A DNA stretch of 64,000 nucleotides from Demequina litoralis (GTDB taxonomy: Bacteria > Actinomycetota > Actinomycetes > Actinomycetales > Demequinaceae): the NCBI RefSeq assembly GCF_030418455.1, contig NZ_JAUHPW010000006.1:169344-233343 (forward strand), written 5' to 3'. Below are positions 11,625 to 25,522 of the stretch, piece by piece. Position 1 is the stretch's first letter. Every line of letters starts with the position of its first letter. The notes under the pieces are model-generated. The model searched no databases. It was not told the DNA's origin and worked only from the letters and a program-made list of their open reading frames with translations. The position numbers and the translations under genes were made by a program.

Positions 11625-13034
11625 TCAGTCCTCGCGCCCCGCCGCCGTCTTCGCATCGAGGCGTGCCCGGACCTCCGCATACCGCTTCTCGGTCAGCGGG
11701 TAGAGCGCGAGCGGGATGAACGCGAGCAGGGTGATGATCACCGGGAAGATGTTCGTCACCAGGTTGATGCCGTTGAGCGTCTCGATGGACTGCTCCTGGT
11801 TCGCGATGAAGCCGAAGGCGCCGATCGCCATGACGCCGACCGCACCACCGACCGCGGACGCGGCCTTGGTGGCGAGGCTGACGGTGGCGAACGCGGAGCC
11901 GTCGGTACGCACACCGGTCTTCTCAGCCGCGTAGTCGATGCACTCGGGGATCATGCCGAAGAAGATCGGCGAGCCGAAGTTGGCGACACCGTAGAAGAAC
12001 GAGAGCACCAGCACGAGGGTCGGATTGTCCCAGCCGACGAGGTACAGCGCCACCAGGAAGGCCGACTGACCCACGAGCGAGATGGCAAGGCCCTTCTTCT
12101 TCCCGAGGCGGTTGACCATCGGGGTGAAGGCCGCGATACCGATGATCGCGCCGATGGACGGGAGCGCCATCGCCGGCGCGATCAGGTCGTAGCGGCCCAC
12201 GTTGTAGATGAGGTAGAAGACCGCGACACCGAGGCGCCCGAAGAAGCCGGTCAGCACCAGGAACATCATCGCGAAGACGAGCATCAGCGGCTTGTTCGTC
12301 GCGACGGCGGCGAAGGTCTGCTTGAGCGAGACGCCACGCGTGGGGTTCTTCACGACCTCCTTGCAGCGCCACGCCACGAGCAGGAACAGCGCGAGCGCGA
12401 CCACGGCGAAGATCGCGACGGCGCCGGTGTATCCCTCGATGGTCGGGGTGCCATCCGTGCTCTTCGAGAGCGCGAGGATCAGCGGCATGGTGCCCAGCGA
12501 GAGACCCACGACACCGATGTTCATGCCGACCATGCGGAAGGAGCCGAGCTCCATGCGCTCCTTGGGGTCGGTGGTCATCACGGTCACGAGCGAGCCGTAG
12601 GGCACGTTGACCATCGAGTAGACGATGCCGAGCAGGCCGTAGGTGACGATCGCGTAGATGAACTTGACGGTGGTGCTGCCCGGCACCGTCATGAAGGTGA
12701 GGACCATCAGGATCGAGAGCACGGGCGAGAAACGCAGGATCCACGTGCGGAACCGTCCGAAGCGGCTCTGTGTACGCTCGGCCGCCGCTCCGACGAAGGG
12801 GTCGATGAAGGCATCGACGATGCGGGCGAGGAGGATCAGCAGACCGACCGAAGCCGCGCTCAGGCCGACCATGTCGGTGTAGAAGACCGCGAGGTAGCTG
12901 GACGTCGTGGTCCAGACCAGCTGCGAGGCCAGGTCGCCGGTGCCGAAGGCGACCTTGTCGAGGAGTGAGAGCTTCTTGGGAGCGGACGTAGCCAGCGTCG
13001 CTGCCGCCTTGTCTGAGTTCTCGAGGGTTGTCAT
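11625..13034 (-). CDS. GPH-family (glycoside-pentoside-hexuronide) sugar:cation symporter
   Basis: Twelve-helix membrane transporter of the MFS/GPH family (relatives LacS, XylP, YicJ), importing a glycoside with H+ or Na+. The 469-residue sequence has the family features KVAFGTGDLASQLVWTTTSSYLAVFYTD in helix 1 and the D-R loop ARIVDAFIDPFVGAAAERTQSRFGRFRTWI after helix 2. The ATG at 13034 follows the ribosome site AAGGAAGAG. It is transcribed alone, because a 14-bp terminator lies between it and the upstream oxidoreductase gene. In this context it is the likely importer of the glycoside degraded by the neighbouring enzymes. Confidence 0.92.
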   Translation of the reverse strand: MTTLENSDKAAATLATSAPKKLSLLDKVAFGTGDLASQLVWTTTSSYLAVFYTDMVGLSAASVGLLILLARIVDAFIDPFVGAAAERTQSRFGRFRTWILRFSPVLSILMVLTFMTVPGSTTVKFIYAIVTYGLLGIVYSMVNVPYGSLVTVMTTDPKERMELGSFRMVGMNIGVVGLSLGTMPLILALSKSTDGTPTIEGYTGAVAIFAVVALALFLLVAWRCKEVVKNPTRGVSLKQTFAAVATNKPLMLVFAMMFLVLTGFFGRLGVAVFYLIYNVGRYDLIAPAMALPSIGAIIGIAAFTPMVNRLGKKKGLAISLVGQSAFLVALYLVGWDNPTLVLVLSFFYGVANFGSPIFFGMIPECIDYAAEKTGVRTDGSAFATVSLATKAASAVGGAVGVMAIGAFGFIANQEQSIETLNGINLVTNIFPVIITLLAFIPLALYPLTEKRYAEVRARLDAKTAAGRED

Positions 13035-13049
13035 TGCTCTTCCTTTGTA

Positions 13050-13063
13050 TTGCGTCCTTGCAA
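13050..13063. promoter_or_regulatory. TTGC-GCAA inverted repeat before the transporter gene
   Basis: TTGCGTCCTTGCAA, a short inverted repeat ending 16 nt before the transporter ATG. With the TGCA-based repeat at 13107-13135 it differs from the 23-bp operators of the rest of the island. Confidence 0.35.
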
Positions 13064-13106
13064 CACGAGGCTCCGAGGGTATCCGGGTTCCGGAGTGTCG
13101 TGCGAC

Positions 13107-13135
13107 ATTGCACTGTCGGGATGGGGCACTGCAAT
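13107..13135. promoter_or_regulatory. ATTGCA...TGCAAT inverted repeat in the transporter promoter region
   Basis: Arms ATTGCAcTG and its near-inverse at 13107 and 13135 (9 of 11 outer bases match), spacer about 11 nt. Located 75-100 nt upstream of the transporter start; a candidate operator for an unidentified regulator. Confidence 0.35.
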
Positions 13136-13154
13136 CCGGGCGCGGGGCCCGTGG

Positions 13155-13190
13155 CCTGGGGAGGCCGGTGAGTGCTCCGGCCTCCCCAGG
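13155..13190 (-). terminator. Strong terminator after the Gfo/Idh gene
   Basis: Perfect 14-bp stem (13155-13168 with 13177-13190) and 8-nt loop, starting 4 nt after the oxidoreductase stop codon. It separates that gene from the transporter gene downstream. Confidence 0.85.
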
Positions 13191-13194
13191 ACGT

Positions 13195-14343
13195 CTAGAC
13201 GGTCGCCGGCTCCGTGGAGTCGATGCCCGCGAGCTGGTTGAACACCACCGGCTGGCCGGTGCGCGCCGAGGTGTAGATGGCGTCGAGGATGTCCGTCACC
13301 ACCGCTGCCTGGTCCGCCGTCACGTACGGGTCGGTGTCGTTGATGATGCAGTTCAACCACGCCTCCGCCTCGAGGCCACCCATGTAGGTGAAGCCGTCGG
13401 GCGCGCCACCCGGAGCACCGAAGTAGGCGGCGCCGGGCTCGGGGGACGTCTTGACGAGCTCGCCTCCCTGGACGTTGTTCAGCGTCACCTTGAGGTCGTT
13501 CTTGCCAGGAAGCATGTCCGTGTCGGCTCCACCGTCGGTGCCCATCAGCGTGACGCAGCCCTCGCGGGAGTCCTGGACATTGAGCGCCCAGGCGGCCTCG
13601 ACAAACAGCGAGGCGCCGTTCGTGAACTTCACGAAGCCGAAGGCGGAGTCCTCCACTGTGTAGGTCTCGGGGTCCCAGGGTCCGGCCATGTTGCCCTCGG
13701 GCTTGTCGCCGAGCTTGTAGTTGACGACGCCGGTGACGGACTCGATCTCGTAGTTGTTCATGAACCACAGTGCCTGGTCGATTGCGTGGCCACCGAGGTC
13801 GATCAGCGGGCCGCCGCCCTGCTTGGTCTCGTCCGTGAAGACGCCCCAGATCGGGACGCCGCGGCGACGGACGGCGTGTGCCTTGGCCGCGTAGATCTCG
13901 CCCAGGCGACCCTCGTCGATCGCCTTGCGCAGGAACTGCGCCTCGTTGCGGAAGCGGTACTGGAAGCCCACCGACAGCTTCTTGCCGACGCGCTTCGCGG
14001 TCTCAGCCATCTCGTGCGCGTCCGCGCCGGTCACAGCCATCGGCTTCTCGACGAGGACGTGCTTGCCGGCCTCGAGCGCCGCAATGGTGATCTCCTTGTG
14101 GCTGACATTCCACGTGCACACGTGGACGACGTCGATGCTGGGGTCGGCCAGCAGCTCCTTGTAGTCAGTGGTCGCGTAGGCACCCTCGGCGCCGTGCGCG
14201 GCGAGCGCCTTCTCGGCGCGGTCGATCTCGTAGTCGCAGAAGGCGACGACCTCCGCCTTGTCCTGGTGCTGCGCGAGGCCGACCAGGTGCTTCTGGGTGC
14301 CGATGAATCCGAGGCCGATGATGCCGACCCTGAGCTTGGCCAT
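13195..14343 (-). CDS. Gfo/Idh/MocA-family NAD(P)-dependent oxidoreductase
   Basis: Sugar dehydrogenase-type enzyme of 382 residues. The Rossmann motif GIIGLGFIGTQKH is at the N-terminus, the EKPMA signature (catalytic Lys of Gfo/Idh enzymes) at about residue 102, and a DLGGHAIDQALW segment near 197 supplies the active-site His. Relatives oxidise C3 of sugars or reduce keto-sugars; DgpA of the gut C-glycoside (puerarin) pathway belongs to this superfamily. Here it may act on 3-keto intermediates or on the released anhydro-sugar. The ATG follows AAGGAG. A 23-bp operator lies 58 nt upstream (14402-14424). Confidence 0.92.
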   Translation of the reverse strand: MAKLRVGIIGLGFIGTQKHLVGLAQHQDKAEVVAFCDYEIDRAEKALAAHGAEGAYATTDYKELLADPSIDVVHVCTWNVSHKEITIAALEAGKHVLVEKPMAVTGADAHEMAETAKRVGKKLSVGFQYRFRNEAQFLRKAIDEGRLGEIYAAKAHAVRRRGVPIWGVFTDETKQGGGPLIDLGGHAIDQALWFMNNYEIESVTGVVNYKLGDKPEGNMAGPWDPETYTVEDSAFGFVKFTNGASLFVEAAWALNVQDSREGCVTLMGTDGGADTDMLPGKNDLKVTLNNVQGGELVKTSPEPGAAYFGAPGGAPDGFTYMGGLEAEAWLNCIINDTDPYVTADQAAVVTDILDAIYTSARTGQPVVFNQLAGIDSTEPATV

Positions 14344-14401
14344 GTCGCTTCTCCTTCGAAACGGTGAACTGTCCCGGCCGCTATGCCGGATTGCGACCTA
14401 A

Positions 14402-14424
14402 CTTAAGGCGAGAATCGACATATT
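14402..14424. promoter_or_regulatory. 23-bp ROK-type operator, site A
   Basis: CTTAAGGCGAG, A, ATCGACATATT: both halves resemble CTTATGnCGAT / ATCGnCATAAG. It lies 58 nt upstream of the Gfo/Idh gene in the 438-nt divergent spacer, which holds no other gene. Confidence 0.65.
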
Positions 14425-14569
14425 GCAAGCCGGAATCCGACGACGGGTCGATTTCGGCCGCCAACCTGGGCCCTTGACCGCCTCGATACCGCTCTGCGAC
14501 CCCCGTCCCGGCCCGCTCGTCAGGGCGGCGGCAGCGCACGTTTGAGCGGGAATCCCGGTGCAGGCCCGC

Positions 14570-14592
14570 CTTGCGACTGTTGCCGACGTAAG
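14570..14592. promoter_or_regulatory. 23-bp ROK-type operator, site G
   Basis: On the minus strand CTTACGTCGGC, A, ACAGTCGCAAG. It is a weaker match but has the same length and symmetry, and it covers the -35 box of the rightward promoter. Confidence 0.5.
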
Positions 14593-14607
14593 TCAGTGTG
14601 CTACCGT
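14580..14607 (+). promoter_or_regulatory. Promoter of the TIM-barrel/DUF6379 operon
   Basis: -35 TTGCCG (14580-14585), 16-bp spacer, -10 TACCGT (14602-14607). The leader to ATG 14782 would be about 165 nt. The -35 lies inside operator site G. Confidence 0.45.
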
Positions 14608-14781
14608 CGGAAGTACCGAGGCCGGCACAGGAGCCGGGCTCATCCCGAGTCACCACCAGTGGCGACGAGGCGAAGGTGACGGCCCAGCGCAGCACGACGG
14701 AGCGCGGCGAGCCGGTCGACACCCTGGCCCCGCGCGAACAGCCGCCGCGGTTTCGCTCCTCATTGGGTGAAGGAGGCACAC

Positions 14782-15807
14782 ATGACCACCGCATCGCAGA
14801 GCTCTCGACTTCCCGTGACGCTGTTCACGGGGCAGTGGGCCGACATGCCCTTCGAGGAGGTGGCGCGCCGGGCGGCCGAGTGGGGCTACGACGGTCTCGA
14901 GATCGCCGCGTCGGGCGACCACCTCGACCTCAAGCGCGCCGACGAGGACGACTCCTACGTGAAGTCCCGCCTCGACATCCTCGACCGACACGGCCTGAAG
15001 GTCTTCGCGATCTCGAACCACCTCACCGGTCAGGCCGTGTGCGACGACCCCATCGACTTCCGCCACCAGGCCATCGTGCGGGACTACACGTGGGGCGACG
15101 GCGACCAGGAGGGCGTGCGCCAGCGCGCCGCGGAGGACATGAAGCGCTCCGCACGGGTGGCCCGCAAGCTCGGCGCCGACGTCGTCACAGGCTTCACCGG
15201 CTCCAAGATCTGGAAGTACGTCGCGATGTTCCCGCCCGTGGGCCAGGACGTCATCGACGACGGCTACGAGGACTTCGCCCGCCGCTGGAACCCCATCCTG
15301 GACGTGTTCAACTCCGAGGGCGTGAAGTACGCCCAGGAGATCCACCCCGGCGAGATCACCTACGACTACTGGACCACCGTGCGCGCGCTCGACGCGATCG
15401 GCAACCGTCCCGAGTTCGGAATCAACTGGGACCCCAGCCACATGTTCTGGCAGGGCATCGACACCGTCGCGTTCATCATCGACTTCGCCGAGCGGATCTA
15501 CCACGTCGACTGCAAGGACACCCGCACGCGCCCCGCCACCGGCCGTGCGGGCATCCTCGGCTCCCATCTGCCGTGGGGCGACCCCCGCCGCGGCTGGGAC
15601 TTCGTGTCCACGGGTCACGGCGACGTGCCTTGGGAGGACGCGTTCCGCACCCTGTCCTCCATCGGCTACACCGGCCCCATCTCCATCGAGTGGGAGGACG
15701 CCGGCATGGACCGTCTCCACGGCGCCGCCCAAGCCGTCGACTACATCCGCAGCCTCCTGTGGAAGCTCCCCGACGGCGCCTTCGACGCCGCCTTCTCGAA
15801 CCAGTGA
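14782..15807 (+). CDS. Sugar phosphate isomerase/epimerase-like TIM-barrel protein
   Basis: A 341-residue xylose-isomerase-like barrel. Metal-ligand segments can be seen: [30 protein letters not shown] and ISIEWEDAG, the Glu-Asp-His-Glu set of the AP-endonuclease-2 superfamily. Such proteins isomerise sugars or lyse 3-keto-glycosides. ATG 14782 is chosen because AGGAGG (14771-14776) stands 5 nt before it; an upstream GTG would place that site inside the gene. First gene of an operon with the DUF6379 gene (24 nt downstream). Its role could be a CarE-like step after deglycosylation or a second lyase. Confidence 0.9.
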
Positions 15808-15831
15808 CCCACCCGCCAGCAAGGAGTTGAC

Positions 15832-16233
15832 ATGCCATCCATCACCCAGTTCTGCATGCGCGAGCCCTTCGAGGCGCGCGTCGCGGACGACACCCTCGCG
15901 TTCCAGGTCTTCGAGCCCTGGTACCGCAGCCTCCCGGTGTCGTGCCTCGCAGGTCTCGACGTGACGCTCGACGGCGAGCCCGTCGCCGCGGACGCCGTGA
16001 CGGTCGAGATCGACGGAGTCGAGCGCACCCTCGCGGAGTGCGACGCCGCGGTCGATGACGTGTGGTTCATCCAGGACCCCGCCACGGTGCGCGTCAAGGG
16101 CGCGACGCCGGCGGACCAGGTCCGCATCGGGGTGCACATGAACTCGCGCATCCCCTACATCATGGTGGGCCCGGAGGTGGCCCTCCCCAAGCACACGGTC
16201 CAGGAAGAGCTCTTCACGGTGGTGAACGCATGA
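15832..16233 (+). CDS. DUF6379 protein, C-glycoside deglycosidase beta-subunit-like
   Basis: A 133-residue, all-beta-looking protein (EPFEARVADDTLAFQVFEPWYRSLPVSCLAGLDVTLDGEPV..., ending GVHMNSRIPYIMVGPEVALPKH...). It resembles DUF6379, the beta subunit of C-glycoside deglycosidases such as CarC, DfgB and DgpC. In those enzymes it pairs with a TIM-barrel alpha subunit that holds the metal site. The stop codon overlaps the ATG of the next TIM-barrel gene (ATGA), as expected for two subunits of one complex. The family call rests on the pattern and on gene context, not on a profile search. Confidence 0.78.
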   Translation: MPSITQFCMREPFEARVADDTLAFQVFEPWYRSLPVSCLAGLDVTLDGEPVAADAVTVEIDGVERTLAECDAAVDDVWFIQDPATVRVKGATPADQVRIGVHMNSRIPYIMVGPEVALPKHTVQEELFTVVNA

Positions 16234-17225
16234 TCAAGCAGGGACTGACCCTCTACTCGGCGACGAACGAGTGGGTTACCGGAAAGTACAACCTCGAGTC
16301 GATCGTGGCGAAGGTCGCGGAGGCCGGCATCGGCCCCGGCGTCGAGGTGGTCGGCTACCAGAGCCTCCGTGGCTTCCCCGAGCTCACGCCAGGCTTCGCG
16401 GACTGGTGGCAGAACCTTCTCGCGCGCTACGAGCTGGTGCCCACCTGCCTCGCGTCGAACATCGACGTCGCGCTGCGGTCGGACCGCCTGCTTACCGACG
16501 ACGAGATGACCGAGTCGCTCACCCGCCAGATGAAGGTGGCGAAGGAGCTGGGCTTCGGCATCGTCCGCACTCAGATCGGCGCCTCCCCCGTGGTGCTCGA
16601 GCGGGTCGCCCCGCTCGCCGAGGACTGGGGGCTGAAGCTCGGCATGGAGCTGCACGCTCCGGAGGGTCCGCGCACCGCGGCGATCCTGCCCGTGCGGGAC
16701 CTCTACGAGCGCGTCGACTCCCCCGCGCTCGGGTTCATCCCCGACTTCAGCGCGACGATGCGCGAGATCCCGACCGGCCTGCTCGACACGCTGCGCGCGG
16801 CGGGTCTCGAGGAGCGCTTCATCGTCTCGCTCGACGAGGCGTGGAAGGGGGAGGGCGCCCCGTTCGAGCGGTACGGCCGCTGGGCAGGCGCCACCGAGGC
16901 GGCCGGCGCGCCCAAGAAGGCGATCCAGGCGGCGATGCTCGTCTTCACCATGTTCGGTCGTGAGCCGATCGAGAGCTGGTACGACATCGCGGACCGCATC
17001 GTCCACGTGCACGGCAAGTGCTACGGCTTCGATGAGGCGGGCGACGAGCCCAGCATCGACTATCCCGCGCTCATCGGGATCCTCGAGGACATCGGCTACG
17101 ACGGCTACATCTCCACAGAGTGGGAGGGCCACTCCTATCTCGGGCCGGACGAGGCCGACTCGTTCGCCGAGGTCGCGAAGCAACAGGCCCTCGTGCGCCG
17201 CATCGTCGGAGCGCGGGTCGGCTGA
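16230..17225 (+). CDS. TIM-barrel protein, C-glycoside deglycosidase alpha-subunit-like
   Basis: A 331-residue barrel translationally coupled to the DUF6379 gene. Putative metal ligands lie in GMELHAPEG, GFIPDFSAT, RIVHVHGKCYGF and YISTEWEGH. The segment HVHGKxYGFDEAGDEPSIDYP resembles what I recall of alpha subunits of C-C-bond-cleaving deglycosidases (CarB, DfgA, DgpB type). Predicted role: with the DUF6379 partner, eliminate the aglycone from a 3-keto-glycoside. A plain sugar isomerase is the alternative. It ends at a terminator shared with the convergent ROK gene. Confidence 0.82.
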   Translation: MIKQGLTLYSATNEWVTGKYNLESIVAKVAEAGIGPGVEVVGYQSLRGFPELTPGFADWWQNLLARYELVPTCLASNIDVALRSDRLLTDDEMTESLTRQMKVAKELGFGIVRTQIGASPVVLERVAPLAEDWGLKLGMELHAPEGPRTAAILPVRDLYERVDSPALGFIPDFSATMREIPTGLLDTLRAAGLEERFIVSLDEAWKGEGAPFERYGRWAGATEAAGAPKKAIQAAMLVFTMFGREPIESWYDIADRIVHVHGKCYGFDEAGDEPSIDYPALIGILEDIGYDGYISTEWEGHSYLGPDEADSFAEVAKQQALVRRIVGARVG

Positions 17226-17254
17226 CCCCACCTCGGCACGCCCGCAACGCGACG

Positions 17255-17287
17255 GAGCCCGGCGCCCTCGACCAGGGTACCGGGCTC
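17255..17287. terminator. Bidirectional terminator between TIM-barrel and ROK genes
   Basis: Stem GAGCCCGG (17255-17262) with CCGGGCTC (17280-17287), and an inner stem GCCCT/AGGGT. It lies between two convergent genes. Confidence 0.7.
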
Positions 17288-17306
17288 TGTGGCGTGAGGG
17301 CCGACG

Positions 17307-18440
17307 TCAGGCGAGGATCTCGTCGAGCACGATTCGCGCGGCGCCGACGACTCCGCCCCGGTCCGGGTGCTGCACCGTGCTCACGGCGAGCTGTCGCGTC
17401 GCCAGCGGCTGAGAGCGCTGGTAGATGGCCTCACGGATGCCGGCGAGGAGGGTCTCGCCCGATTCCGCCATCTCGCCGCCGATGACGATCTGGCCGGGGT
17501 TGAGGATCGAGACGCAGGTGGCGAGGACCTCCCCGATCATACGGCCGGCCTCGCGCGAGACGCGTGTCGCGAGCGGGTGCCCCGCGCGGACCAGCCGCAC
17601 CACGTCGTCCGCGGAGGCCGCCTCGACACCCTCGGCCCGCAGGCTCTCGGCGATCCCGCGGCCCGAGGCGTAGGCCTCGAGGCAGCCGGTCTGACCGCAT
17701 CGGCACAGTCGCGGCTGCGCGCCGACCACCTGGATGTGCCCGATGTCGCCCGCCGCGCCCTGCGCACCGCGCGTCAGGCCGCCGCCGCTGATGATGCCCG
17801 CGCCGATGCCGGTCGCGACCTTGACGACCACCAGGTCGGACTCGTCCGGGAAGCGCGTGGTCCACTCGCCGAGGGCGAGCAGGTTGACGTCGTTGTCGAC
17901 CACGACGGGGACGTCGAACACCTTGCGGATCCTCCCGCGCACGTCGACTCCGTCCCAGCCAGGCATGATCGGCGGGCTCACCGGCATGCCGGTCGAGTGC
18001 TCGACCGGACCCGGGAGGCCCACGCCGGCGCCCCACACCGCGGCGGCGACCCCAAGCTCCCGCAACTGGGACTCCCATGCCTCGAGCACCGCCGACAGGA
18101 CGGCGTCGGGACCCGCCGCGATATCGATGTCCTCCCGGCGATGGGCGAGCACCGTGCCCCCGAGGTCGACCACCGCGAGGTACGCGTGGCGAGCTCCGAG
18201 GTCGGCTGCGAGCACCACGCCGCCGGCGGCGTTGAACTCGTAGGTGACGGACGGTCGCCCGCCGGTCGAGACCACCCCGTCGCTCTCGCGCACGAGGCCG
18301 CGACCGGTGAGCGAGTCGAGGCGCATCGCGATCGTGGATCGCGCCTGCCCGGTGAGCTGCGCGAGCTCGCTCTTGGTCCTCGGCTCGCCCTCGCGCAGGA
18401 TCGCGAGCACATCGGACGGTGCGGAAGCGGGTCGGGCCAC
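17307..18440 (-). CDS. ROK-family transcriptional repressor 1
   Basis: A 377-residue regulator: N-terminal winged helix-turn-helix (DVLAILREGEPRTKSELAQLTGQARSTIAMRLDSL, residues 8-45) and a C-terminal ROK sugar-binding domain with DLGARHAYLAVVD, VGLPGPVEHSTG, VVVDNDVNLLALGEW and the zinc motif CRCGQTGCLEAYASG. The kinase-type GGTK phosphate loop is absent (DLGARH), so it should sense rather than phosphorylate sugar. GTG 18440 follows a GAGAGGGGG ribosome site. It is divergent from the second ROK repressor; a half-match to the 23-bp operator lies at 18481. Confidence 0.92.
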   Translation of the reverse strand: MARPASAPSDVLAILREGEPRTKSELAQLTGQARSTIAMRLDSLTGRGLVRESDGVVSTGGRPSVTYEFNAAGGVVLAADLGARHAYLAVVDLGGTVLAHRREDIDIAAGPDAVLSAVLEAWESQLRELGVAAAVWGAGVGLPGPVEHSTGMPVSPPIMPGWDGVDVRGRIRKVFDVPVVVDNDVNLLALGEWTTRFPDESDLVVVKVATGIGAGIISGGGLTRGAQGAAGDIGHIQVVGAQPRLCRCGQTGCLEAYASGRGIAESLRAEGVEAASADDVVRLVRAGHPLATRVSREAGRMIGEVLATCVSILNPGQIVIGGEMAESGETLLAGIREAIYQRSQPLATRQLAVSTVQHPDRGGVVGAARIVLDEILA

Positions 18441-18480
18441 CGTTGGCCCCCTCTCGGTTCGTCGACGTTTGTCAGCCCAT

Positions 18481-18503
18481 CTTAGGGCGATGCGCGCCAC
18501 GGT
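18481..18503. promoter_or_regulatory. Weak half-match to the 23-bp operator before ROK repressor 1
   Basis: The left half CTTAGGGCGAT matches well; the right half CGCGCCACGGT does not. It may be a half-site or chance. Confidence 0.25.
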
Positions 18504-18613
18504 TATGGCGACGCCGGTTCGCAGATAGGCGACGATCTGTCGCGCTCGAGACCAGGTAGGACACGCGGGCTGCCCGCTTCGTCCCCGCGCGCACTCGTGG
18601 AGAGATCACCCTC

Positions 18614-18636
18614 GATATGGTGGTAATCGACATTAG
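18614..18636. promoter_or_regulatory. 23-bp ROK-type operator, site B
   Basis: GATATGGTGGT, A, ATCGACATTAG. It covers the expected -35 region of the ROK repressor 2 promoter, whose -10 is TAGACT at 18643-18648, implying autoregulation. Confidence 0.6.
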
Positions 18637-18688
18637 TGATGCTAGACTCTCGCAAAAGGGCGCAGACCCTGCGGACGAAGGAGCGGCA

Positions 18689-19831
18689 ATGCTGGCGCTA
18701 TCAACGGATGCGAGCACGGTGCTCGCGATTCTCCGCGACGGGATTCCCCGCACCAAGAGCCAGCTCGCGGAGGCGGCCGAGTGCTCCCGGTCGACAGTGT
18801 CGGCGCACCTCGCGCACCTCGTCGAGATCGACCTCGTCTCGCAGCTCGACGAGACCCTCACCACCAAAGGCCGGCCGTCCACGCTGTACGCCCTTCACGC
18901 GACGAGCCGCGTCATCCTGGCCGCCGACATCGGCATGCGGCACGCGACGGTGGCCGTCACGGACCTCGCCGGTCGCGTCATGTCGCACCGCCTCCTCGCG
19001 GTCGAGGTCGAACAGGGCCCTGACATCGTTCTCGAGGCCGTCCTCCGAGAGGGGCACGCGCAGCTCGACGGTCACCACCTCGACGCTTCTCGGATCGCCG
19101 GCGTCGGCGTCGGCCTGCCCGGCGCCGTCGACCATGCCTCGGACCGCCCGATCCTGCCGCTGGCGATTCCGGGCTGGGACGGCTACGACCTCGTCGGGCG
19201 CATCCGGGCGGAGATCGACGCCCCGGTGCTCGTGGAGAACGACGTCAACGTGATGGCCATCGGCGAAGGCATCCTCACCTGGCCGCACGAACGAGAAGTC
19301 CTCATGGTCAAGGTGGCGACGGGCATCGGCGCCGGCGTGATCACGCACCAGCGGGTCGTGCGCGGCTCCGAGGGAGTGGCTGGCGATATCGGCCACATCC
19401 GCGTCGAGGCGGCCGGCGACCGCATGTGCACGTGCGGCCAGACGGGATGCCTCGGCACGGTCGCCAGTGGGCTCGGCATCGCCGAGACGCTGCGTCAGCA
19501 GGGCCTCGACACCGACGACGGTCGTCAGATCGTCGCGCTCGTCCGCTCCGGCTCGACAGCCGCAACCTCGGCGGTGAGACAGGCCGGTCGCGCGATCGGC
19601 GAGGCGCTCGCCGCGTGCATCGCAGTGCTGAATCCTTCGGTGATCGTCATCGGCGGAAGCCTCGCCGCTGTCGGCGAGCCGCTTCTCGCGGGTATCCGCG
19701 AGGTGGTCTACCAGCGCGCCCAGCCGCTCGCATCGCGGCACCTCCGCATCGTCCCCGCCCATGACATCGAGCTGGCCGGCATCGCCGGCCTGTCGCGCCT
19801 GGTCCAAGGCGTCGTCTTCCGGCTCGTCTGA
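18689..19831 (+). CDS. ROK-family transcriptional repressor 2
   Basis: A 380-residue paralogue of the neighbouring repressor: HTH in VLAILRDGIPRTKSQLAEAAECSRSTVSAHLAHL, then a ROK domain with DIGMRHATVAVTD, VGLPGAVDHAS, VLVENDVNVMAIGEG and CTCGQTGCLGTVASG. In the zinc motif the usual Glu after CL is Gly, and the kinase loop is degenerate, so this is a sensor. ATG 18689 follows AAGGAG. It is cotranscribed with the ROK kinase 41 nt downstream. With operator site B at its promoter it is the best candidate for binding the 23-bp sites. Confidence 0.92.
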   Translation: MLALSTDASTVLAILRDGIPRTKSQLAEAAECSRSTVSAHLAHLVEIDLVSQLDETLTTKGRPSTLYALHATSRVILAADIGMRHATVAVTDLAGRVMSHRLLAVEVEQGPDIVLEAVLREGHAQLDGHHLDASRIAGVGVGLPGAVDHASDRPILPLAIPGWDGYDLVGRIRAEIDAPVLVENDVNVMAIGEGILTWPHEREVLMVKVATGIGAGVITHQRVVRGSEGVAGDIGHIRVEAAGDRMCTCGQTGCLGTVASGLGIAETLRQQGLDTDDGRQIVALVRSGSTAATSAVRQAGRAIGEALAACIAVLNPSVIVIGGSLAAVGEPLLAGIREVVYQRAQPLASRHLRIVPAHDIELAGIAGLSRLVQGVVFRLV

Positions 19832-19872
19832 CACCGCGCCGCCACGGCGCATCGCCCTCAAGGAGGAGAACC

Positions 19873-20838
19873 ATGCATTCGCTCGGAGTCGACATCGGCG
19901 GCACCAAGGTCGCGCTCGGCGTCATCGACGCGGACGGCGCGATCATCGAGCGCCGGGAGTACCCCACACCCGGCAGCCCGACCGGCATCGACGAGGTCAT
20001 CGTCGCGGCGTATCGCGAGCTTGCCGAGCGCCACGCCATCGTCTCGATGGGCCTCGCAGTGCCCGGACTGGTCTCCTCGGATCGCGAGACCGTGATGTTC
20101 GCCCCCAACGTCAACTACCGGAACTACCCGATCGCCGCGCGAATCCGCACCCTCATCGACGACGAGGTCCCCGTGCTCGTCGAGAACGACGCGAACGCCG
20201 CAGGCTGGGCCGAGTACGCGCTGGGCGCCGGAGACGGCCGCGACATGCTCATGCTCACCATCGGTACCGGCGTGGGCGGCGCGGTCGTGCTGGGGGGCCA
20301 GGTGCTCCGCGGGGCGCACGGCGCGGGAGCCGAGGTGGGCCACTTGCAGATCGTCGACGGCGGGCTCACCTGCGGATGCGGTCAGCAGGGCTGCTTCGAG
20401 GCCTACGCCTCGGGGACCGCGCTCGAGCGGATGGCACGCGAGGCCGTGGGTCGGGGCTCGGCCGCCTCGGCACGCCTCCAGGCGATCGCCGCAGTGGACG
20501 GCGCGGTGCGCGGCAAGCACGTCGCCCTCGCCGCCGCCGAGGGTGACACGCTGTCGCTCGACCTGCTCGACCGGCTCGGCGAGTGGATCGGCCGGGGCGC
20601 CGCCAGCCTTGCGGCCGTCCTCGACCCGGCCGTCATCGTCATCGGCGGTGGAGTGTCGACGGTCGGCGACCCCCTCTTCACCGGCATCCGCCGCGGCTTC
20701 TCGCGCCACCTCACCGGCGGCGAGAACCGTCCCGTCGCGCCGATCATCCCCGCCGCGTTCGGCAACGAGGCCGGGATCCTCGGTGCCGCGGACCTCGCCC
20801 GCGCGGCCGCGAACGCCGCGCCCGCGCTCGCTCGATAG
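19873..20838 (+). CDS. ROK-family sugar kinase (glucokinase-like)
   Basis: A 321-residue ATP-dependent hexose kinase: phosphate loop VDIGGTKVALGVID, sugar and catalytic segment VLVENDANAAGWAEYALG (Asp as base), TIGTGVGGAVVLGGQ, and the zinc motif CGCGQQGCFEAYASG. It has no HTH. It probably phosphorylates glucose or an isomer released in this pathway. The ATG follows AAGGAGG and the gene is coexpressed with ROK repressor 2. A 20-bp perfect terminator follows. Confidence 0.92.
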   Translation: MHSLGVDIGGTKVALGVIDADGAIIERREYPTPGSPTGIDEVIVAAYRELAERHAIVSMGLAVPGLVSSDRETVMFAPNVNYRNYPIAARIRTLIDDEVPVLVENDANAAGWAEYALGAGDGRDMLMLTIGTGVGGAVVLGGQVLRGAHGAGAEVGHLQIVDGGLTCGCGQQGCFEAYASGTALERMAREAVGRGSAASARLQAIAAVDGAVRGKHVALAAAEGDTLSLDLLDRLGEWIGRGAASLAAVLDPAVIVIGGGVSTVGDPLFTGIRRGFSRHLTGGENRPVAPIIPAAFGNEAGILGAADLARAAANAAPALAR

Positions 20839-20843
20839 GACGT

Positions 20844-20889
20844 CGCCGGGCTTCCCGTCGGCCATGCGCGGCCGACGGGAAGCCCGGCG
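20844..20889 (+). terminator. Strong terminator after the ROK kinase
   Basis: Perfect 20-bp stem (20844-20863 with 20870-20889) and a 6-nt loop, starting 5 nt after the stop codon. This is one of the longest perfect stems in the window. Confidence 0.85.
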
Positions 20890-20917
20890 TCGCGGCGGTC
20901 GGCCACCCACCTCCGCA

Positions 20918-20940
20918 CTTATGACGATGGTTGACATAAG
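20918..20940. promoter_or_regulatory. 23-bp ROK-type operator, site C
   Basis: CTTATGACGAT, G, GTTGACATAAG: a near-perfect palindrome. It contains the TTGACA -35 box of the small-protein promoter, so a bound repressor would block polymerase. Confidence 0.8.
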
Positions 20941-20960
20941 GGCACGGCTCGACATACAAT
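20931..20960 (+). promoter_or_regulatory. Consensus-like sigma-70 promoter of the small-protein gene
   Basis: TTGACA (20931-20936), 18-bp spacer, TACAAT (20955-20960). It is the best -35/-10 pair in the window. Transcription would begin near 20967. Confidence 0.75.
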
Positions 20961-20967
20961 GACTTCA

Positions 20968-21044
20968 GCGTCCCAGCTTGGCAACGAGGCATTCGCCCGC
21001 CAAGACGGGACGCTTTCTGGTCCCAACGTGGGGCAGCCGGGACC
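20968..21044 (+). promoter_or_regulatory. Structured 5' leader with mutually exclusive hairpins
   Basis: Right at the predicted transcript start, GCGTCCC/CTTGGC (20968-20982) pairs with GCCAAG/GGGACGC (20999-21013), and TTTCT follows. GGTCCC (21019-21024) pairs with GGGACC (21039-21044). GGGAC of the first hairpin can instead pair with GTCCC of the second. Such competing stems are typical of attenuators or leader switches; the function is inferred only. Confidence 0.45.
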
Positions 21045-21117
21045 CCCGACTCCACGTCACGGCTCCCGGATTCATCCGGCTCGCGCACCACCGCGCGGCA
21101 CAACATCCAGGAGAGCC

Positions 21118-21270
21118 ATGTTCCTCAAGTTCATGACACCGTTCGCGGGCGCCTCGTTCGGCGCGACCTACCTTCACACCGAGCAGCACGCCGCCGCCGA
21201 TTCCGAGTCCGCCAAGCGGGCTTTCGAGGCGGAGTTCGAGCCCGAGTTCGAGCTCGCCGTCGCGCGCTGA
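21118..21270 (+). CDS. Small protein of unknown function (50 residues)
   Basis: An amphipathic or weakly hydrophobic N-terminus (MFLKFMTPFAGASFGATYLH) is followed by an acidic helix-like part (SAKRAFEAEFEPEFELAVAR). ATG 21118 follows the ribosome site AGGAG (21109). The gene has its own consensus-like promoter, a 23-bp operator and a 150-nt structured leader, so it is probably strongly expressed with the island. No family recognised. It could be a regulator, an assembly factor for the deglycosidase, or a membrane-associated peptide; the sequence does not decide. Confidence 0.7.
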   Translation: MFLKFMTPFAGASFGATYLHTEQHAAADSESAKRAFEAEFEPEFELAVAR

Positions 21271-21417
21271 CCACACGGATCCCGCAGAAGGCCCGCGGCG
21301 CCGCAACCCGCCGGTCTGGTCGTGCACAAAGGCGTGCCGCCCTTCGGCCCCGGCGCGTGAGCCCGCCACCCTCAATTACCACAGCAACCGACGCAACTTA
21401 GTGACACGGGCTTTTGT

Positions 21418-21440
21418 TTTATAGCGATAATCGGCATAAG
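21418..21440. promoter_or_regulatory. 23-bp ROK-type operator, site D
   Basis: TTTATAGCGAT, A, ATCGGCATAAG: the core CGATAATCG is fully palindromic. It overlaps a GATAAT -10-like sequence (21426-21431) with GTGACA upstream (21401-21406), before the fusion gene. Confidence 0.75.
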
Positions 21441-21521
21441 ATGGCACCAACGCCGTCGCGCACCGAGGCGCAAGGCACGACCACCCCGGCACCGAGGCCG
21501 GGGAGAGTAGTGAAGGACACC

Positions 21522-22829
21522 ATGCTCGACCGGAGCATCATCCAGAACCGCGGTTTTGCGAACACCTTCGACGGCGACCGGATCACCGGTTTCCAGGTGG
21601 CTCTGCGCAACCCGAACTACCGCGGGCTCACCTCGAGCCTCGTCGACGGCGTGTCGGTCACCGTCGCGGGCCGCACCTGGACCCACGAGGAGACGTCGAT
21701 CGTGCTCCAGGGCCGCGCGTTCACGCTCGCCGAACTGCGCGCCTCGACCGGCGCGCGCTGGAACGCCGATGAGGTCGCGTGCGTCAAGGTGCCGCTCGAA
21801 GGCGGCCTTCCGCGCGGCGTCCACGACGTCGCGGTCGACATCCGCCTGCGCGCGCCCTACTTCCCCATCGAGTTCCAGCCGAACGTCTTCCATGCAGAGC
21901 GCGCGTGCACGCTCGTGTCCCCCGTGGCGCAGCCCCGCTTCAAGTACGGCGTCTCGACGTACAGCTACACCGGCGACATGCACACCATCATGACGCTCGA
22001 GGACGCGATGGCGGAGATCGCCGACATGGGCGCCACCGGCCTGGAGATCCTCGGCGAGGCGAACGTGCCCGGCTACCCCGAGCCGTCGAAGGCCTGGCTC
22101 GACACGTGGTTCGCCAACCTCGACAAGTACGGCCTCGAGCCCACCAATATGGGCTCGTGGATCGACAGCCGCATGTGGCTCGACCGCGACCTCACGGTCG
22201 AGGAGGGCGCCGCCGCCCTGGAGCGCGACATCCGTCTGGCGTCGCTGCTCGGCTTCAGCTTCGTGCGCCCGAAGATCGGCGTCACGTCGCTCGAGCTGGA
22301 CCCGCACCCCATCTGGGACGAGGCGGTCGAGCGCAACCTTCAGCTCGCGGCCGACAAGGGTGTGGTGATCTGCCCCGAGATCCACAGCCCCACCCCGATC
22401 AAGCACCGTGTGGTGGACGACTACATCGCCTTCATCGAGCGCACCGGCACCAAGAACTTCGGCCTGCTGATCGACACCGGCATCTTCATGACCAAGCATG
22501 CGTTCTTCGGCCTGGACGGCATGGCCGAGCCCACGAGCGTGGAGGAGGTGCCCGTCCCGCTGCGCGCGCTCAACGTGCCCGCGAGCGACCTGCGCGAGGT
22601 CATGCCGTACGTGGTCTTCATCCAGTCGAAGTTCTACAACGTCGACGAGGACCTGGTCGACTCGCACATCCCGTGGGAGCCCGTGCTCGACGTCCTCTCC
22701 GAGACCGGCTACACCGGCTACCTCTCGAGCGAGTACGAGGGCCCGCGCGACCCGGGCCGCGGCACCGAGCAGGTGCGCCGCCAGCACGCGATGTTCCACC
22801 GCCTGGACGCGGAGGCCGGCAGGGCCTGA
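21522..22829 (+). CDS. DUF6379-TIM-barrel fusion: one-chain deglycosidase-like protein
   Basis: A 435-residue protein joining two parts seen as separate subunits elsewhere. Residues 1-135 (SIIQNRGFANTFDGDRITGFQVALRNPNYRGL...) look like DUF6379, the beta subunit of C-glycoside deglycosidases. Residues 145-435 (FKYGVSTYSYTGDMHTIM...) form a xylose-isomerase-like barrel with ligand segments CPEIHSPT, GLLIDTGIF, FIQSKFYN and LSSEYEGP. ATG 21522 is 4 nt after GAAGGA; GTG 21510 is an alternative. An in-frame ATG at 21414 is rejected because operator D lies within it. Predicted role: cleavage of a 3-keto-glycoside. Confidence 0.82.
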   Translation: MLDRSIIQNRGFANTFDGDRITGFQVALRNPNYRGLTSSLVDGVSVTVAGRTWTHEETSIVLQGRAFTLAELRASTGARWNADEVACVKVPLEGGLPRGVHDVAVDIRLRAPYFPIEFQPNVFHAERACTLVSPVAQPRFKYGVSTYSYTGDMHTIMTLEDAMAEIADMGATGLEILGEANVPGYPEPSKAWLDTWFANLDKYGLEPTNMGSWIDSRMWLDRDLTVEEGAAALERDIRLASLLGFSFVRPKIGVTSLELDPHPIWDEAVERNLQLAADKGVVICPEIHSPTPIKHRVVDDYIAFIERTGTKNFGLLIDTGIFMTKHAFFGLDGMAEPTSVEEVPVPLRALNVPASDLREVMPYVVFIQSKFYNVDEDLVDSHIPWEPVLDVLSETGYTGYLSSEYEGPRDPGRGTEQVRRQHAMFHRLDAEAGRA

Positions 22830-22856
22830 CCCGGCTCCGCCCGCATCGTCCCGCCG

Positions 22857-22893
22857 CAAGAGCCGCTCCTCCGTCCCGGGGGAACGGCTCTTG
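22857..22893 (+). terminator. Terminator after the fusion gene
   Basis: CAAGAGCCG (22857-22865) pairs with CGGCTCTTG (22885-22893), 19-nt loop. Confidence 0.65.
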
Positions 22894-23057
22894 CCGTGTG
22901 CGGCGACGGGTGAGCCGCGCGCCGCGCCGGCACTCTCCCGCGCCGCCACCATCCCCGGTGTCGGACTGATCGCCGATCGCACCGTCGTGCGAGCCGCCAG
23001 CAGCCCGCACGTCGGATCGATCCCGGAGGCCTCCGCCAGGCGCGCCGGCCCATGCGA

Positions 23058-23087
23058 AGGCCCCTCGCCCTATGGGGCGAGGGGCCT
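23058..23087 (-). terminator. Terminator after the GMC oxidoreductase gene
   Basis: Perfect 13-bp stem (23058-23070 with 23075-23087) with a 4-nt loop, just downstream of the minus-strand stop at 23110. Confidence 0.8.
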
Positions 23088-23109
23088 CACGGAGCGAGCG
23101 GAGCGGCTC

Positions 23110-24807
23110 TCAGTAGGTGACGTGCTCGGTGGGTCGCGCCAGGCCGCCGCTCGCGTGCTGGTCGGCGATGAACGCCCCGGCCCGCGCGGAGAGCGCCATG
23201 ATCGTCAACGCCGGCCCCACCGTGCTGCTGCTGACGAACGAGGCGCCGTCCGTCACGAACACGTTGGGAGCGTCCCACAACTGGTTGACGCCGTTGACCA
23301 CCGAGGTCGCGGGATCCGCGCCCATGCGCGCGCCGCCGCACTCGTGGATCGCGGCGCCCGGCACCACCGACAGCTTGATCCCCTGCTTGAAGATGAGGCG
23401 ACGCACCGGGTTGAAGCGGGGCCACACCTTCTTGGACTCGAGACCGGCAGCCGAACCGATGAAGTTGGCGCGGTAGCCCGCCTCGTCGCCCATCTCCTTG
23501 AGGACGGTCATCGAGCGCTTGAGGAGCAGTCGGTCGTTGTCCGACATGGTGAGGTCGATGTGCGGCACCCGCATTCCCCAGCGGTCCTTGACGCGGCTAA
23601 GGGTGACCGCGTTCTCGCGGCGCGCGAGCATCTCTCCCGCGCCGCCGAGTCCGAGCACCGCCGGGTCGCCGTCCGGAGTGGGCATGCGCCCGCCTAGTCC
23701 CTGGAAGGAGATGCCCCGGAGGAACGATGCGTCGGCATGGTCGCCGATGTTCTCGTAGCGCGGGATGAGGATGCCACCTGGGACGCCGTAGAACGGGTCC
23801 GCCGGCATGTTCTCCGGCATCGCAGACATGCCCGCGTGACGAGGCGACTCGAAGAAGCCGATGCTGATCGTCTGGTCCATGAAGTAGCGGCCGAGCGTCC
23901 CGGACGAGTTGCCCAGGCCGTACGGGTGACGTGCCGAGCCGGAGTTGAGCAGCAGGCGGATCGACTCGATGGTCGACGCCGCGACCACGACCGTGTCGGC
24001 GCGCACCGAGTAGGCCTGCTTGGTGGTGCGGTCGACGAACTCGACCCCGGTCGCGAGGCCGGTCGCGTCGTCGGTCACGATGCGCGTGACCTCGGCCTCG
24101 GTGCGGATCGTGAGCCGTCCGGTCGCCTTGGCGGCGGCGATGCCGGGCGGTATGCCGTGCTCGAAGTTCGCCTGGCACCGCCACGAGATGACGCGTCGCT
24201 CGGGCCAGCGCGCCTCGACGCGCTCCTTGAAGTCGGTCTCGACGTCGGTGAGGTGGCCGGGCCCGACGTACCTCCCGTCCGGGGGATGGGTGAGCCCGTC
24301 CTTGTCGCCGTAGACGCCGATCGCGTCCTCGACCTTCTCGTACCAGGGGGCCAGGTCCGCGTACGCCAGCGGCCAGTCATCTCCGTACCCGTCCGCGCTC
24401 GCCGCCTTGAAGTCGACGTCCGACATGCGCTGCAGGACTCGTCCATAGCTGTGCATGCGCCCGCCGAGCAGCTTGCCACGCACCCACAGGTAGGGGTGCG
24501 TCGGCGGGTGCGTGTATGGATCCTGGAGGTCGTTGACCAGGAATCGGTTGGTGAGCGGGTTGTAGTACGGCCGCCGTGCCTGCGTGACCTGGCCGCGCGC
24601 CATCGCCCCGGCGCGTGGGAACAGGTCGAGGCCCACGCCGCCCTTCTTGCGACGCTTGGGGAAGGTGAAGTCCTCCTCGCGTAGCTCGCGGCCTGCGTCG
24701 ATGAGCAGCACCTCGAGACCGCGCGCGGTCAGCTCCTGAACCGCCGAGCTCCCGCCCGGACCGGATCCCACGATGATCGCGTCGTACGCCCGTTCGGTGA
24801 TGGACAT
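23110..24807 (-). CDS. GMC-family FAD-dependent oxidoreductase (glycoside 3-oxidase/dehydrogenase-like)
   Basis: A 565-residue flavoprotein: FAD-binding IIVGSGPGGSSAVQEL at residues 10-25, LLIDAGREL, a GMC substrate domain with LLGGRMHSYGRVLQRMS, and the C-terminal HECGGARMGADP carrying the conserved catalytic His488. Where GMC enzymes normally have Asn in the C-terminal NPxLTI motif, this protein has Gly531 (VGPALTI). No signal peptide or Tat motif is seen, so it is cytoplasmic. By context it would oxidise C3 of a glycoside, like CarA or pyranose oxidase. ATG 24807; operator E lies 58 nt upstream. Confidence 0.88.
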   Translation of the reverse strand: MSITERAYDAIIVGSGPGGSSAVQELTARGLEVLLIDAGRELREEDFTFPKRRKKGGVGLDLFPRAGAMARGQVTQARRPYYNPLTNRFLVNDLQDPYTHPPTHPYLWVRGKLLGGRMHSYGRVLQRMSDVDFKAASADGYGDDWPLAYADLAPWYEKVEDAIGVYGDKDGLTHPPDGRYVGPGHLTDVETDFKERVEARWPERRVISWRCQANFEHGIPPGIAAAKATGRLTIRTEAEVTRIVTDDATGLATGVEFVDRTTKQAYSVRADTVVVAASTIESIRLLLNSGSARHPYGLGNSSGTLGRYFMDQTISIGFFESPRHAGMSAMPENMPADPFYGVPGGILIPRYENIGDHADASFLRGISFQGLGGRMPTPDGDPAVLGLGGAGEMLARRENAVTLSRVKDRWGMRVPHIDLTMSDNDRLLLKRSMTVLKEMGDEAGYRANFIGSAAGLESKKVWPRFNPVRRLIFKQGIKLSVVPGAAIHECGGARMGADPATSVVNGVNQLWDAPNVFVTDGASFVSSSTVGPALTIMALSARAGAFIADQHASGGLARPTEHVTY

Positions 24808-24865
24808 GAGCCGCCCTGCCTCTCCCTTGAAACCGGCATCCGCACTTACGAGTGCGCTACTGCTA

Positions 24866-24888
24866 CTTATAGAGGTTATCACCATAAG
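24866..24888. promoter_or_regulatory. 23-bp ROK-type operator, site E
   Basis: CTTATAGAGGT, T, ATCACCATAAG upstream of the GMC gene. A small palindrome (CGCACT/AGTGCG, 24841-24856) lies between it and the start codon. Confidence 0.7.
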
Positions 24889-25483: not shown

Positions 25484-25522
25484 GCGCCGAGTTACTTTAG
25501 CACGTTTCTGGAGGCCTATACG

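What the first reader, a model, noticed from the sequence alone, without database searches (positions are those of the whole stretch)
11625..24888. Probable C-glycoside (3-keto-glycoside) catabolic island
Seen: in 13 kb, a GPH glycoside symporter, a Gfo/Idh/MocA oxidoreductase, a GMC flavoprotein, a coupled DUF6379 + TIM-barrel gene pair, a DUF6379-TIM fusion, a further TIM-barrel protein, a ROK kinase and two ROK repressors. Known: C-glycoside deglycosidases (CarB/CarC, DfgA/B, DgpB/C) are TIM-barrel + DUF6379 complexes acting after C3 oxidation by a GMC-type (CarA) or Gfo/Idh-type (DgpA) enzyme. Inferred: this locus imports a plant C-glycoside (or O-glycoside), oxidises C3, cleaves the aglycone and recycles the sugar. 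Two parallel deglycosidase forms and two candidate oxidoreductases make it more complex than a single-substrate route.
Basis: partly seen in the sequence, partly recalled or inferred. Interest (0 to 1): 0.85.

Follow-up and report, generated by a model that had tools for sequence, protein, structure and literature searches.

The report
Plant C-glycoside dismantling gene island
An actinobacterium, very probably a Demequina, carries a 13.9-kb block of genes, missing from most of its close relatives, that is predicted to import plant compounds whose sugar is held by a hard-to-break carbon bond, cut that bond without hydrolysis and feed the freed glucose into metabolism; the parts are known kinds, but their combination and the DNA control site likely shared with distant relatives appear new.

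Summary
Window 11625 to ~24.8 kb encodes a GPH symporter, a DgpA-clade Gfo/Idh enzyme, two C-glycoside deglycosidases (a CGDbeta/CGDalpha gene pair and a one-chain fusion), a ROK glucokinase, two ROK regulators and a GMC flavoprotein. The "further TIM barrel" is a relative of 2-hydroxy-3-keto-glucal hydratase, so each step of the published oxidation, beta-elimination, hydration, reduction route has a candidate gene, plus glucokinase. The pair keeps all AgCGD2 active-site residues checked; the fusion keeps all but one (metal ligand His269 is Gln, as in its solved Microbacterium testaceum relative). DgpA, GMC and CGD genes occur in the same 3 of 44 genus genomes. The island sits between a methyltransferase gene and tRNA-Leu/fhaA; a relative has the empty site. 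New here: DgpA plus a non-CarA GMC clade stands where CarA usually does, and a palindrome (YTTAT-N13-ATAAR) occurs three times in the 3.02-Mb genome, all in this island; close variants lie just upstream of the fused gene in 40 of 80 loci from many genera. No activity was measured; substrate, GMC role and the palindrome's binding protein are inferred. New variant of a known kind.

The parts
11625..13034 (-). GPH-type glycoside:cation symporter, predicted importer of the glycoside
   Evidence: TIGR00792 352 bits over cut-off 231; MelB structures 116 bits; a 52% homologue next to DgpA in L048
13195..14343 (-). DgpA-clade Gfo/Idh/MocA oxidoreductase, predicted C3 dehydrogenase of the glycoside that gives its hydride to 3-keto-glucose
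   Evidence: PDB 7xr9 DgpA 409 bits, 9m3d DgpA1 380, next 97; the entry named DgpA2 of P581a only 76; same 3 of 44 genus genomes as CGD
14767..15807 (+). TIM-barrel relative of 2-hydroxy-3-keto-glucal hydratase
   Evidence: PDB 2zds 487 bits; 8ro4 '2-hydroxy-3-keto-glucal hydratase' 130 bits; present in 22 of 44 genus genomes
15832..16233 (+). C-glycoside deglycosidase beta subunit (CGDB, formerly DUF6379)
   Evidence: PF19906 50.4 bits, cut-off 27.6; its Tyr31 aligns with Tyr39 of 9m3a_B in the alignment
16230..17225 (+). C-glycoside deglycosidase alpha subunit (TIM barrel)
   Evidence: AgCarB2 7dnm_A 231 bits; keeps E147 H149 D179 H269 K271 E305 E307 of AgCGD2
17307..18500 (-). ROK-family transcription regulator (HTH + ROK)
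   Evidence: PF00480 188 bits with N-terminal HTH; 72% homologue directly upstream of the fused gene in D. lignilytica
18617..19831 (+). second ROK-family transcription regulator, divergent from the first
   Evidence: PF00480 179 bits with N-terminal HTH
19873..20838 (+). ROK glucokinase
   Evidence: TIGR00744 275 bits over cut-off 260; glucokinase 3vgk 269 bits
20918..20940 (.). candidate operator 1, CTTAT-N13-ATAAG, overlapping the -35 of the only promoter-like hit (20931-20960)
21418..21440 (.). candidate operator 2, just upstream of the fused gene
21522..22829 (+). one-chain C-glycoside deglycosidase (CGDB domain fused to the TIM barrel); metal-ligand His replaced by Gln
23110..24807 (-). 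GMC-family flavoprotein of a non-CarA clade, predicted sugar dehydrogenase
   Evidence: GMC_oxred_C/N; fructose dehydrogenase 81 bits, PsG3Ox 49, CarA 43; Foldseek best fructose and glucose dehydrogenases; same 3 of 44 genomes
24866..24888 (.). candidate operator 3, upstream of the GMC gene
25397..25483 (-). tRNA-Leu(cag) bordering the island
   Evidence: empty-site comparison

Best explanation
A 13.9-kb island, absent from the same site in a relative, encodes a predicted complete route that likely strips the sugar off aryl C-glucosides (and probably O-glucosides) by oxidation, beta-elimination, hydration and reduction rather than hydrolysis. Predicted steps: the GPH symporter brings the glycoside in; the DgpA-type enzyme oxidises the sugar's C3; the CGD pair or the one-chain CGD, each with a metal-binding TIM barrel and a beta domain that holds the aglycone, eliminates the aglycone and leaves 2-hydroxy-3-keto-glucal; the hydratase-like TIM barrel adds water to give 3-keto-glucose; DgpA reduces that to glucose while oxidising the next glycoside, so the cycle is redox-neutral; the ROK glucokinase phosphorylates the glucose. 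Since such a cycle needs some 3-keto sugar to start and to make up losses, the GMC flavoprotein would be its primer, making 3-keto-glucoside with an outside electron acceptor. A palindromic operator in front of the fused CGD and the GMC gene would couple them, perhaps through a ROK repressor. Shown by calls: families, active-site residues, linkage, empty site, operator distribution. Inferred: substrates, reaction directions, the primer role, the regulator.
For: Fusion = solved M. testaceum C-glucosyl deglycosidase kind; pair = AgCarB2-C2 kind with 7 of 7 checked metal/catalytic residues kept (residues from PMC8563793). DgpA-clade membership. Hydratase relative. Glucokinase. [quoted passage not shown] DgpA, GMC, CGDalpha and CGDB fall in the same 3 of 44 genus genomes, within 15 kb of each other in each. 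In 80 fused-CGD loci CarA/G3Ox-type GMC occurs in 56, DgpA with window-type GMC in 2, never both (label checked). DgpA and GMC hits share 12 contig lengths of 5 kb or more (own and D. lignilytica among them), against 0.17 for shifted lengths. Palindrome: 3 in 3.02 Mb, all here; within 200 bp upstream of the fused gene in 40 of 80 loci at 2 mismatches or fewer, 41 of 101 sites in 16 of 1,613 kb. Empty site in G024.
Against: No activity, transcript or growth datum exists. CGD enzymes also take O-glucosides (PMC10628242), so C-glycosides need not be the natural substrate. The hydratase relative is only 130 bits from 8ro4, its closest match 2zds bears no function, and it occurs in 19 genus genomes without CGD, next to other Gfo/Idh genes and sugar ABC transporters in the 3 looked at, so it may serve other routes. 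The GMC clade lacks the Asn of the CarA-type motif (Gly in 15 of 15), so its chemistry may differ. The operator's protein is unsettled: 36 of 40 site-bearing loci hold a LysR-type gene and only 1 a ROK regulator, while 20 of the 40 site-less loci hold a ROK regulator; in L050 no site stands before the GMC gene, and L048 has none within 200 bp of its fused gene. In the window the DgpA and hydratase genes have only weak sites (3 mismatches). The fused CGD has Gln for a metal ligand whose Ala mutants were dramatically less active in two other CGDs.
Confidence: 0.75

Rival explanations
1. The island serves O-glucosides or other 3-keto-glycosides (arbutin-, phlorizin- or disaccharide-like), and C-glycosides are at most a side substrate; the two CGDs act as general 3-keto-glycoside beta-eliminases.
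For: PuCGE cleaves both 3-keto O- and C-glucosides (PMC10628242 passages); the DgpA homologue D3dgpA oxidises C- and O-glycosides (PMC11239390); that GPH symporters usually carry ordinary glycosides is recalled.
Against: The alpha subunit of PuCGE alone has no activity on the 3-keto C-glucoside but keeps a little on the O-glucoside (PMC13273386), so a kept beta domain points to C-glycosides, and both forms here keep it with the corresponding tyrosine. The fusion is the kind titled C-glucosyl deglycosidase in the PDB; in Arthrobacter globiformis its relative lies beside other CGD genes and a CarA/G3Ox-type oxidase (L063).
Confidence: 0.25
2. Two separate pathways lie side by side: DgpA + CGD pair + hydratase for one class of glycosides (for example C8), and GMC + fused CGD under the palindrome for another (C6), each with its own ROK regulator.
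For: In the window the palindrome with no more than 2 mismatches stands only before the fused CGD and the GMC gene; the fusion is nearer DfgA (42%) than the other CGDs compared, the pair nearest AgCGD2-like proteins (38-39%), published as acting on C6- and C8-glycosides (PMC8563793); there are two ROK regulators.
Against: In D. lignilytica the palindrome stands before a ROK gene, DgpA and the fused CGD, joining both halves; G001 holds GMC next to DgpA without the fusion.
Confidence: 0.3
3. The GMC flavoprotein is not a sugar oxidase of this route but acts on the released aglycone or is a bystander.
For: Gly instead of Asn at the second catalytic position in 15 of 15 relatives; the His is kept.
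Against: Same 3 of 44 genomes as DgpA and CGD, 12 shared contig lengths with DgpA; nearest solved relatives are fructose, glucose and glycoside oxidoreductases.
Confidence: 0.2

Closest known systems
Microbacterium testaceum C-glucosyl deglycosidase (PDB 8qrz, 8un2)
   Different: Most fused-CGD loci fetched (56 of 80, many of them Microbacterium) have a CarA/G3Ox-type GMC instead of DgpA; no paper on 8qrz found
DgpA / DgpB-DgpC puerarin system of gut bacterium PUE
   Same: DgpA-type Gfo/Idh C3 oxidation plus CGD complex
   Different: Reported almost only from Bacillota (PMC12724307); here Actinomycetota, with hydratase, glucokinase, fused CGD and GMC genes added; alpha subunit nearer AgCGD2 than PuCGD
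CarA / CarB-CarC (Microbacterium sp. 5-2b) and PurABC (Paenarthrobacter)
   Same: Actinobacterial CGD heterodimer, GMC flavoprotein in the locus
   Different: GMC here is 28% identical to the CarA/G3Ox-type of L063 and lacks its Asn; a DgpA-type enzyme is present
Agrobacterium tumefaciens OGE/HYD operon
   Same: Four-step non-hydrolytic logic (PMC10628242); a hydratase relative (8ro4; that 8ro4 is the Agrobacterium enzyme is recalled)
   Different: AtOGE is unrelated in sequence to CGDs and specific for the O-glycoside; the oxidase there is GlycDH

Membership tests
C-glycoside deglycosidase (CGD), heterodimeric | CGDB beta subunit gene coupled to a TIM-barrel alpha gene | tested here: met
   PF19906 50.4 bits and AP_endonuc_2 51 bits, 4-nt overlap
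C-glycoside deglycosidase (CGD), heterodimeric | Metal ligands E147 D179 H269 K271 E305 and base H149 (AgCGD2 numbering) | tested here: met
   all kept (residues from PMC8563793)
C-glycoside deglycosidase (CGD), heterodimeric | Cleavage of 3-oxo-C-glycosides | not testable with these tools
   needs enzyme assay
One-chain CGD (8qrz kind) | CGDB and TIM barrel in one chain, fold of 8qrz | tested here: met
One-chain CGD (8qrz kind) | All five AgCGD2 metal ligands | tested here: not met
   H269 is Gln in the window protein, in 8qrz and in 20 of 20 aligned fusions; so it does not define this clade
DgpA | Sequence in the clade of PUE DgpA within Gfo/Idh/MocA | tested here: met
   409 bits to DgpA (7xr9) and 380 to DgpA1 of W974-1, 97 to the next; an enzyme named DgpA2 of P581a scores only 76. 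Judged by scores, no tree built
DgpA | Bound NAD(H), 3-oxo-glucose as acceptor | not testable with these tools
   needs assay
CarA / G3Ox C-glycoside oxidase | CarA-clade sequence with the Asn of its NPTLT motif | tested here: not met
   28% identity to the L063 enzyme, which matches PsG3Ox at 1050 and CarA at 771 bits, while the window's GMC scores 49 and 43; Gly in place of Asn in 15 of 15 clade members
2-hydroxy-3-keto-glucal hydratase | Homology to the characterised enzyme (8ro4) | tested here: met
   130 bits, residues 29-341
2-hydroxy-3-keto-glucal hydratase | Hydratase activity | not testable with these tools
   needs assay
Genomic island | Absent at the same site in a relative, beside a tRNA | tested here: met
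   PCMT and fhaA 120 bp apart in G024; tRNA-Leu
Genomic island | Integrase gene and att repeat of the tRNA end | tested here: not met
   no second copy of a 23-nt stretch at the tRNA end in the window at 3 mismatches or fewer; no integrase among the ten island genes

The most novel reading that the evidence does not exclude
A self-priming, redox-neutral glycoside-stripping cycle in an actinobacterium: a new clade of GMC flavoprotein without the usual second catalytic residue makes the first 3-keto sugar, after which DgpA, two CGDs and the hydratase run catalytically on that primer, all held under one palindromic operator that recurs upstream of fused CGD genes in many actinobacterial genera and so marks a phylum-wide, undescribed regulon for C-glycoside breakdown.
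Probability: 0.25. Interest if true: 0.7.

Novelty: new variant of a known kind. Interest (0 to 1): 0.47.

Why it matters
C-glycosides such as orientin, mangiferin or carminic acid resist glycosidases, and how environmental bacteria open them is still being worked out. Print tends to divide C3 oxidation by lineage: NAD-type DgpA in gut Bacillota, FAD-type CarA/PurA mainly in Actinomycetota (PMC12724307). This locus crosses that divide and shows in one place candidates for a full route to glucose 6-phosphate, with a testable answer to how the 3-keto-glucose-dependent DgpA cycle could start. The palindrome gives a handle to find the regulator and other C-glycoside loci. The His-to-Gln metal site and the Asn-less GMC clade are concrete enzymology questions.

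Tried and rejected
Third deglycosidase for 14767-15807: rejected, it matches 2zds and 8ro4, and no CGD at E up to 0.001. CarA membership for the GMC: rejected. ORF 22498-23697(+) as a gene: rejected, no family hit, and it overlaps both the fused gene and the GMC gene. Integrase-type island: no att repeat. RNA element in the island: no Rfam hit at gathering score. First genome-contig scan with the single fused protein found nothing; repeated with alignment A1. A phylum sample of 396 genomes was too poor in CGD to test linkage. LysR as the palindrome's binder: left open; 36 of 40 site-bearing loci hold one and G000 has a 44% homologue elsewhere, but so does CGD-less G030 (45%). Literature: no paper for 8QRZ (one search was badly phrased and listed polymer papers), none with 2-hydroxy-3-keto-glucal + hydratase + elimination, none with Demequina + C-glycoside, one unrelated paper on an operator search; only open-licence PMC text was searched, so this is no proof of novelty. 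The GMC model is only pLDDT 69, so its fold ranking is soft. No tree was built for any family.
Full report
WHAT IS THERE. The window is part of contig 19 of a 3.02-Mb, 22-contig genome, 71.6% GC. Its genus is very probably Demequina: G040 of the same genus has a contig of 402,109 bases, the length of the Demequina lignilytica SYSU T00039 contig NZ_JAUHPX010000003.1 that holds the orthologous locus, and the nearest named fused protein is from D. lignilytica. Between a PCMT methyltransferase gene (10850-11479) and tRNA-Leu(cag) (25397-25483) lie ten genes with family hits.

ACTIVE SITES. Using the AgCGD2 residues in Mori et al. (PMC8563793; passages and sections 11 and 13 read), the pair's alpha subunit keeps E147, H149, D179, H269, K271, E305 and E307; the fusion keeps all except H269, which is Gln there, in 8qrz and in the 8qrz-like protein of A. 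globiformis, and in 20 of 20 aligned fusions. In print Ala mutants of these ligands in PuCGD and MiCGD were dramatically less active, so the Gln is a real clade difference. The Tyr that corresponds to Tyr39 of the beta subunit (aglycone tyrosine of PuCGE; PMC13273386, part 1 of 3 read) is found in the pair's beta subunit by its alignment to 9m3a_B, and a Tyr is invariant in the YRG stretch of the fusions. In the GMC clade the Asn of the CarA-type NPTLT motif is Gly in 15 of 15, while the His is kept.

PATHWAY LOGIC. Bitter et al. (PMC10628242; passages and section 7) describe oxidation, elimination, hydration and reduction for three operons. DgpA regenerates NAD+ with 3-oxo-glucose (PMC11239390, passages). 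Each step has a candidate gene here. That the GMC enzyme primes the cycle is my inference.

LINKAGE. In the genus, CGDB, DgpA-type at E up to 1e-60, this GMC at 1e-30 and CGD alpha at 1e-8 each occur in the same 3 of 44 genomes (G000, G001, G040), within 15 kb of each other in each. The hydratase relative occurs in 22 of 44, elsewhere beside other Gfo/Idh genes, sugar ABC transporters and ROK regulators (3 loci examined of 6 fetched), so it has a wider role. Among the 80 best of 310 fused-CGD loci in named genomes, a separate CGD alpha of the pair's type occurs in 59, a CarA/G3Ox-type GMC in 56, DgpA with the window's GMC type in 2 (L048, Propionibacteriaceae UBA7704; L050, D. lignilytica), CarA-type and DgpA together in 0; hydratase in 8 and this ROK kinase in 2. 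Some loci are cut by contig ends, and each was seen only to 10 kb on either side. The query used for 'CarA/G3Ox-type', from A. globiformis, matches PsG3Ox at 1050 bits and CarA at 771. So the window belongs to a rare sub-type in which DgpA plus another GMC stands where CarA usually does. The PurABC paper (abstract and Discussion read) found DgpABC homologues almost only in Bacillota at E up to 1e-50; the DgpA homologue here would meet that value, the CGD subunits would not (132 bits alpha to PuCGD), so its count is not contradicted, but DgpA-clade genes joined to CGD genes do exist in Actinomycetota. DgpA and GMC hits of the protein searches share 12 contig lengths of 5 kb or more, own and D. 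lignilytica among them (mean 0.17 for shifted lengths).

ISLAND. In G024 the PCMT and fhaA matches lie 120 bp apart, and the stretch between holds a terminator-like palindrome and a tRNA-Leu sequence like those that in the window lie at the far end of the island: an empty site. In G030 7 kb, and in G018, G021 and G040 1.5-1.7 kb, separate the two genes (in G018 the gap holds the PHO4 gene), and G040's CGD locus lies about 175 kb away: a variable spot. GC is 0.65-0.70 in 10 of the 13 one-kb steps from 12000 to 24999, and 0.71-0.75 in every step shown outside. No integrase or att repeat was found.

OPERATOR. Palindromes noticed in the intergenic sequence led to YTTAT-N13-ATAAR: three matches in the window and three in the whole genome, none for the backward control; two stand before the fused CGD and one before the GMC gene. 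Extended to CTTATG-N11-CATAAG with up to 2 mismatches, it lies within 200 bp upstream of the fused gene in 40 of 80 loci (exact: 12), 41 of 101 sites falling in 16 of 1,613 kb. Of spacers 8 to 19 only 13 gives upstream matches, and the 19 other permuted arms give none upstream. Many of these loci are Microbacterium, so they are not independent events, though Demequina, Actinotalea, Salinibacterium, Arthrobacter, Pseudarthrobacter, Pseudoclavibacter, Subtercola and Leifsonia are among them. In the 21.3 kb of D. lignilytica the only three sites at up to 3 mismatches (1 mismatch each) stand before a ROK gene, DgpA and the fused CGD; none stands before its GMC gene. In L048 sites stand before the hydratase and DgpA genes but not the fused gene; in G001 one (2 mismatches) lies between a sugar-binding-protein gene and a ROK gene. 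Against a ROK binder: 36 of the 40 site-bearing loci hold a LysR-type gene and 1 a ROK regulator, and 20 of the 40 site-less loci hold a ROK regulator, 17 a LysR-type gene. The binder is therefore unsettled.

VERDICT. A well-founded C-glycoside (3-keto-glycoside) breakdown island of a known chemistry, in an unusual gene combination, with a conserved candidate operator that the literature searched did not show. Biochemistry is untested.

Noticed in passing
window 21118-21270 (+): A 50-aa open frame (MFLKFMTPFAG...), the end of the 103-aa ORF listed, follows the promoter-like site and first palindrome and precedes the fused CGD; possible small protein or leader peptide.
   Followed up: no
L063 3648-5129: Arthrobacter globiformis holds a second, different one-chain CGD (beta-alpha fusion, alpha part 39% identical to the window's pair, His at the metal site), so fusion may have arisen more than once.
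   Followed up: partly
L128, L129, L131 (other genus members): The hydratase relative lies beside a Gfo/Idh enzyme, a sugar ABC transporter and a ROK regulator in genomes without CGD: perhaps another 3-keto-sugar route.
   Followed up: partly
L090, L098: Fused CGD in contigs titled Aestuariibacter and Gammaproteobacteria, with a 34% relative of the window's GMC nearby.
   Followed up: no
window 9895-10761: Small protein with only the C-terminal GmrSD restriction domain (PF07510), upstream of the island.
   Followed up: no
window 25397-25483 and 25454-26239: The mechanical fhaA ORF overlaps tRNA-Leu; its true start is probably further in.
   Followed up: no
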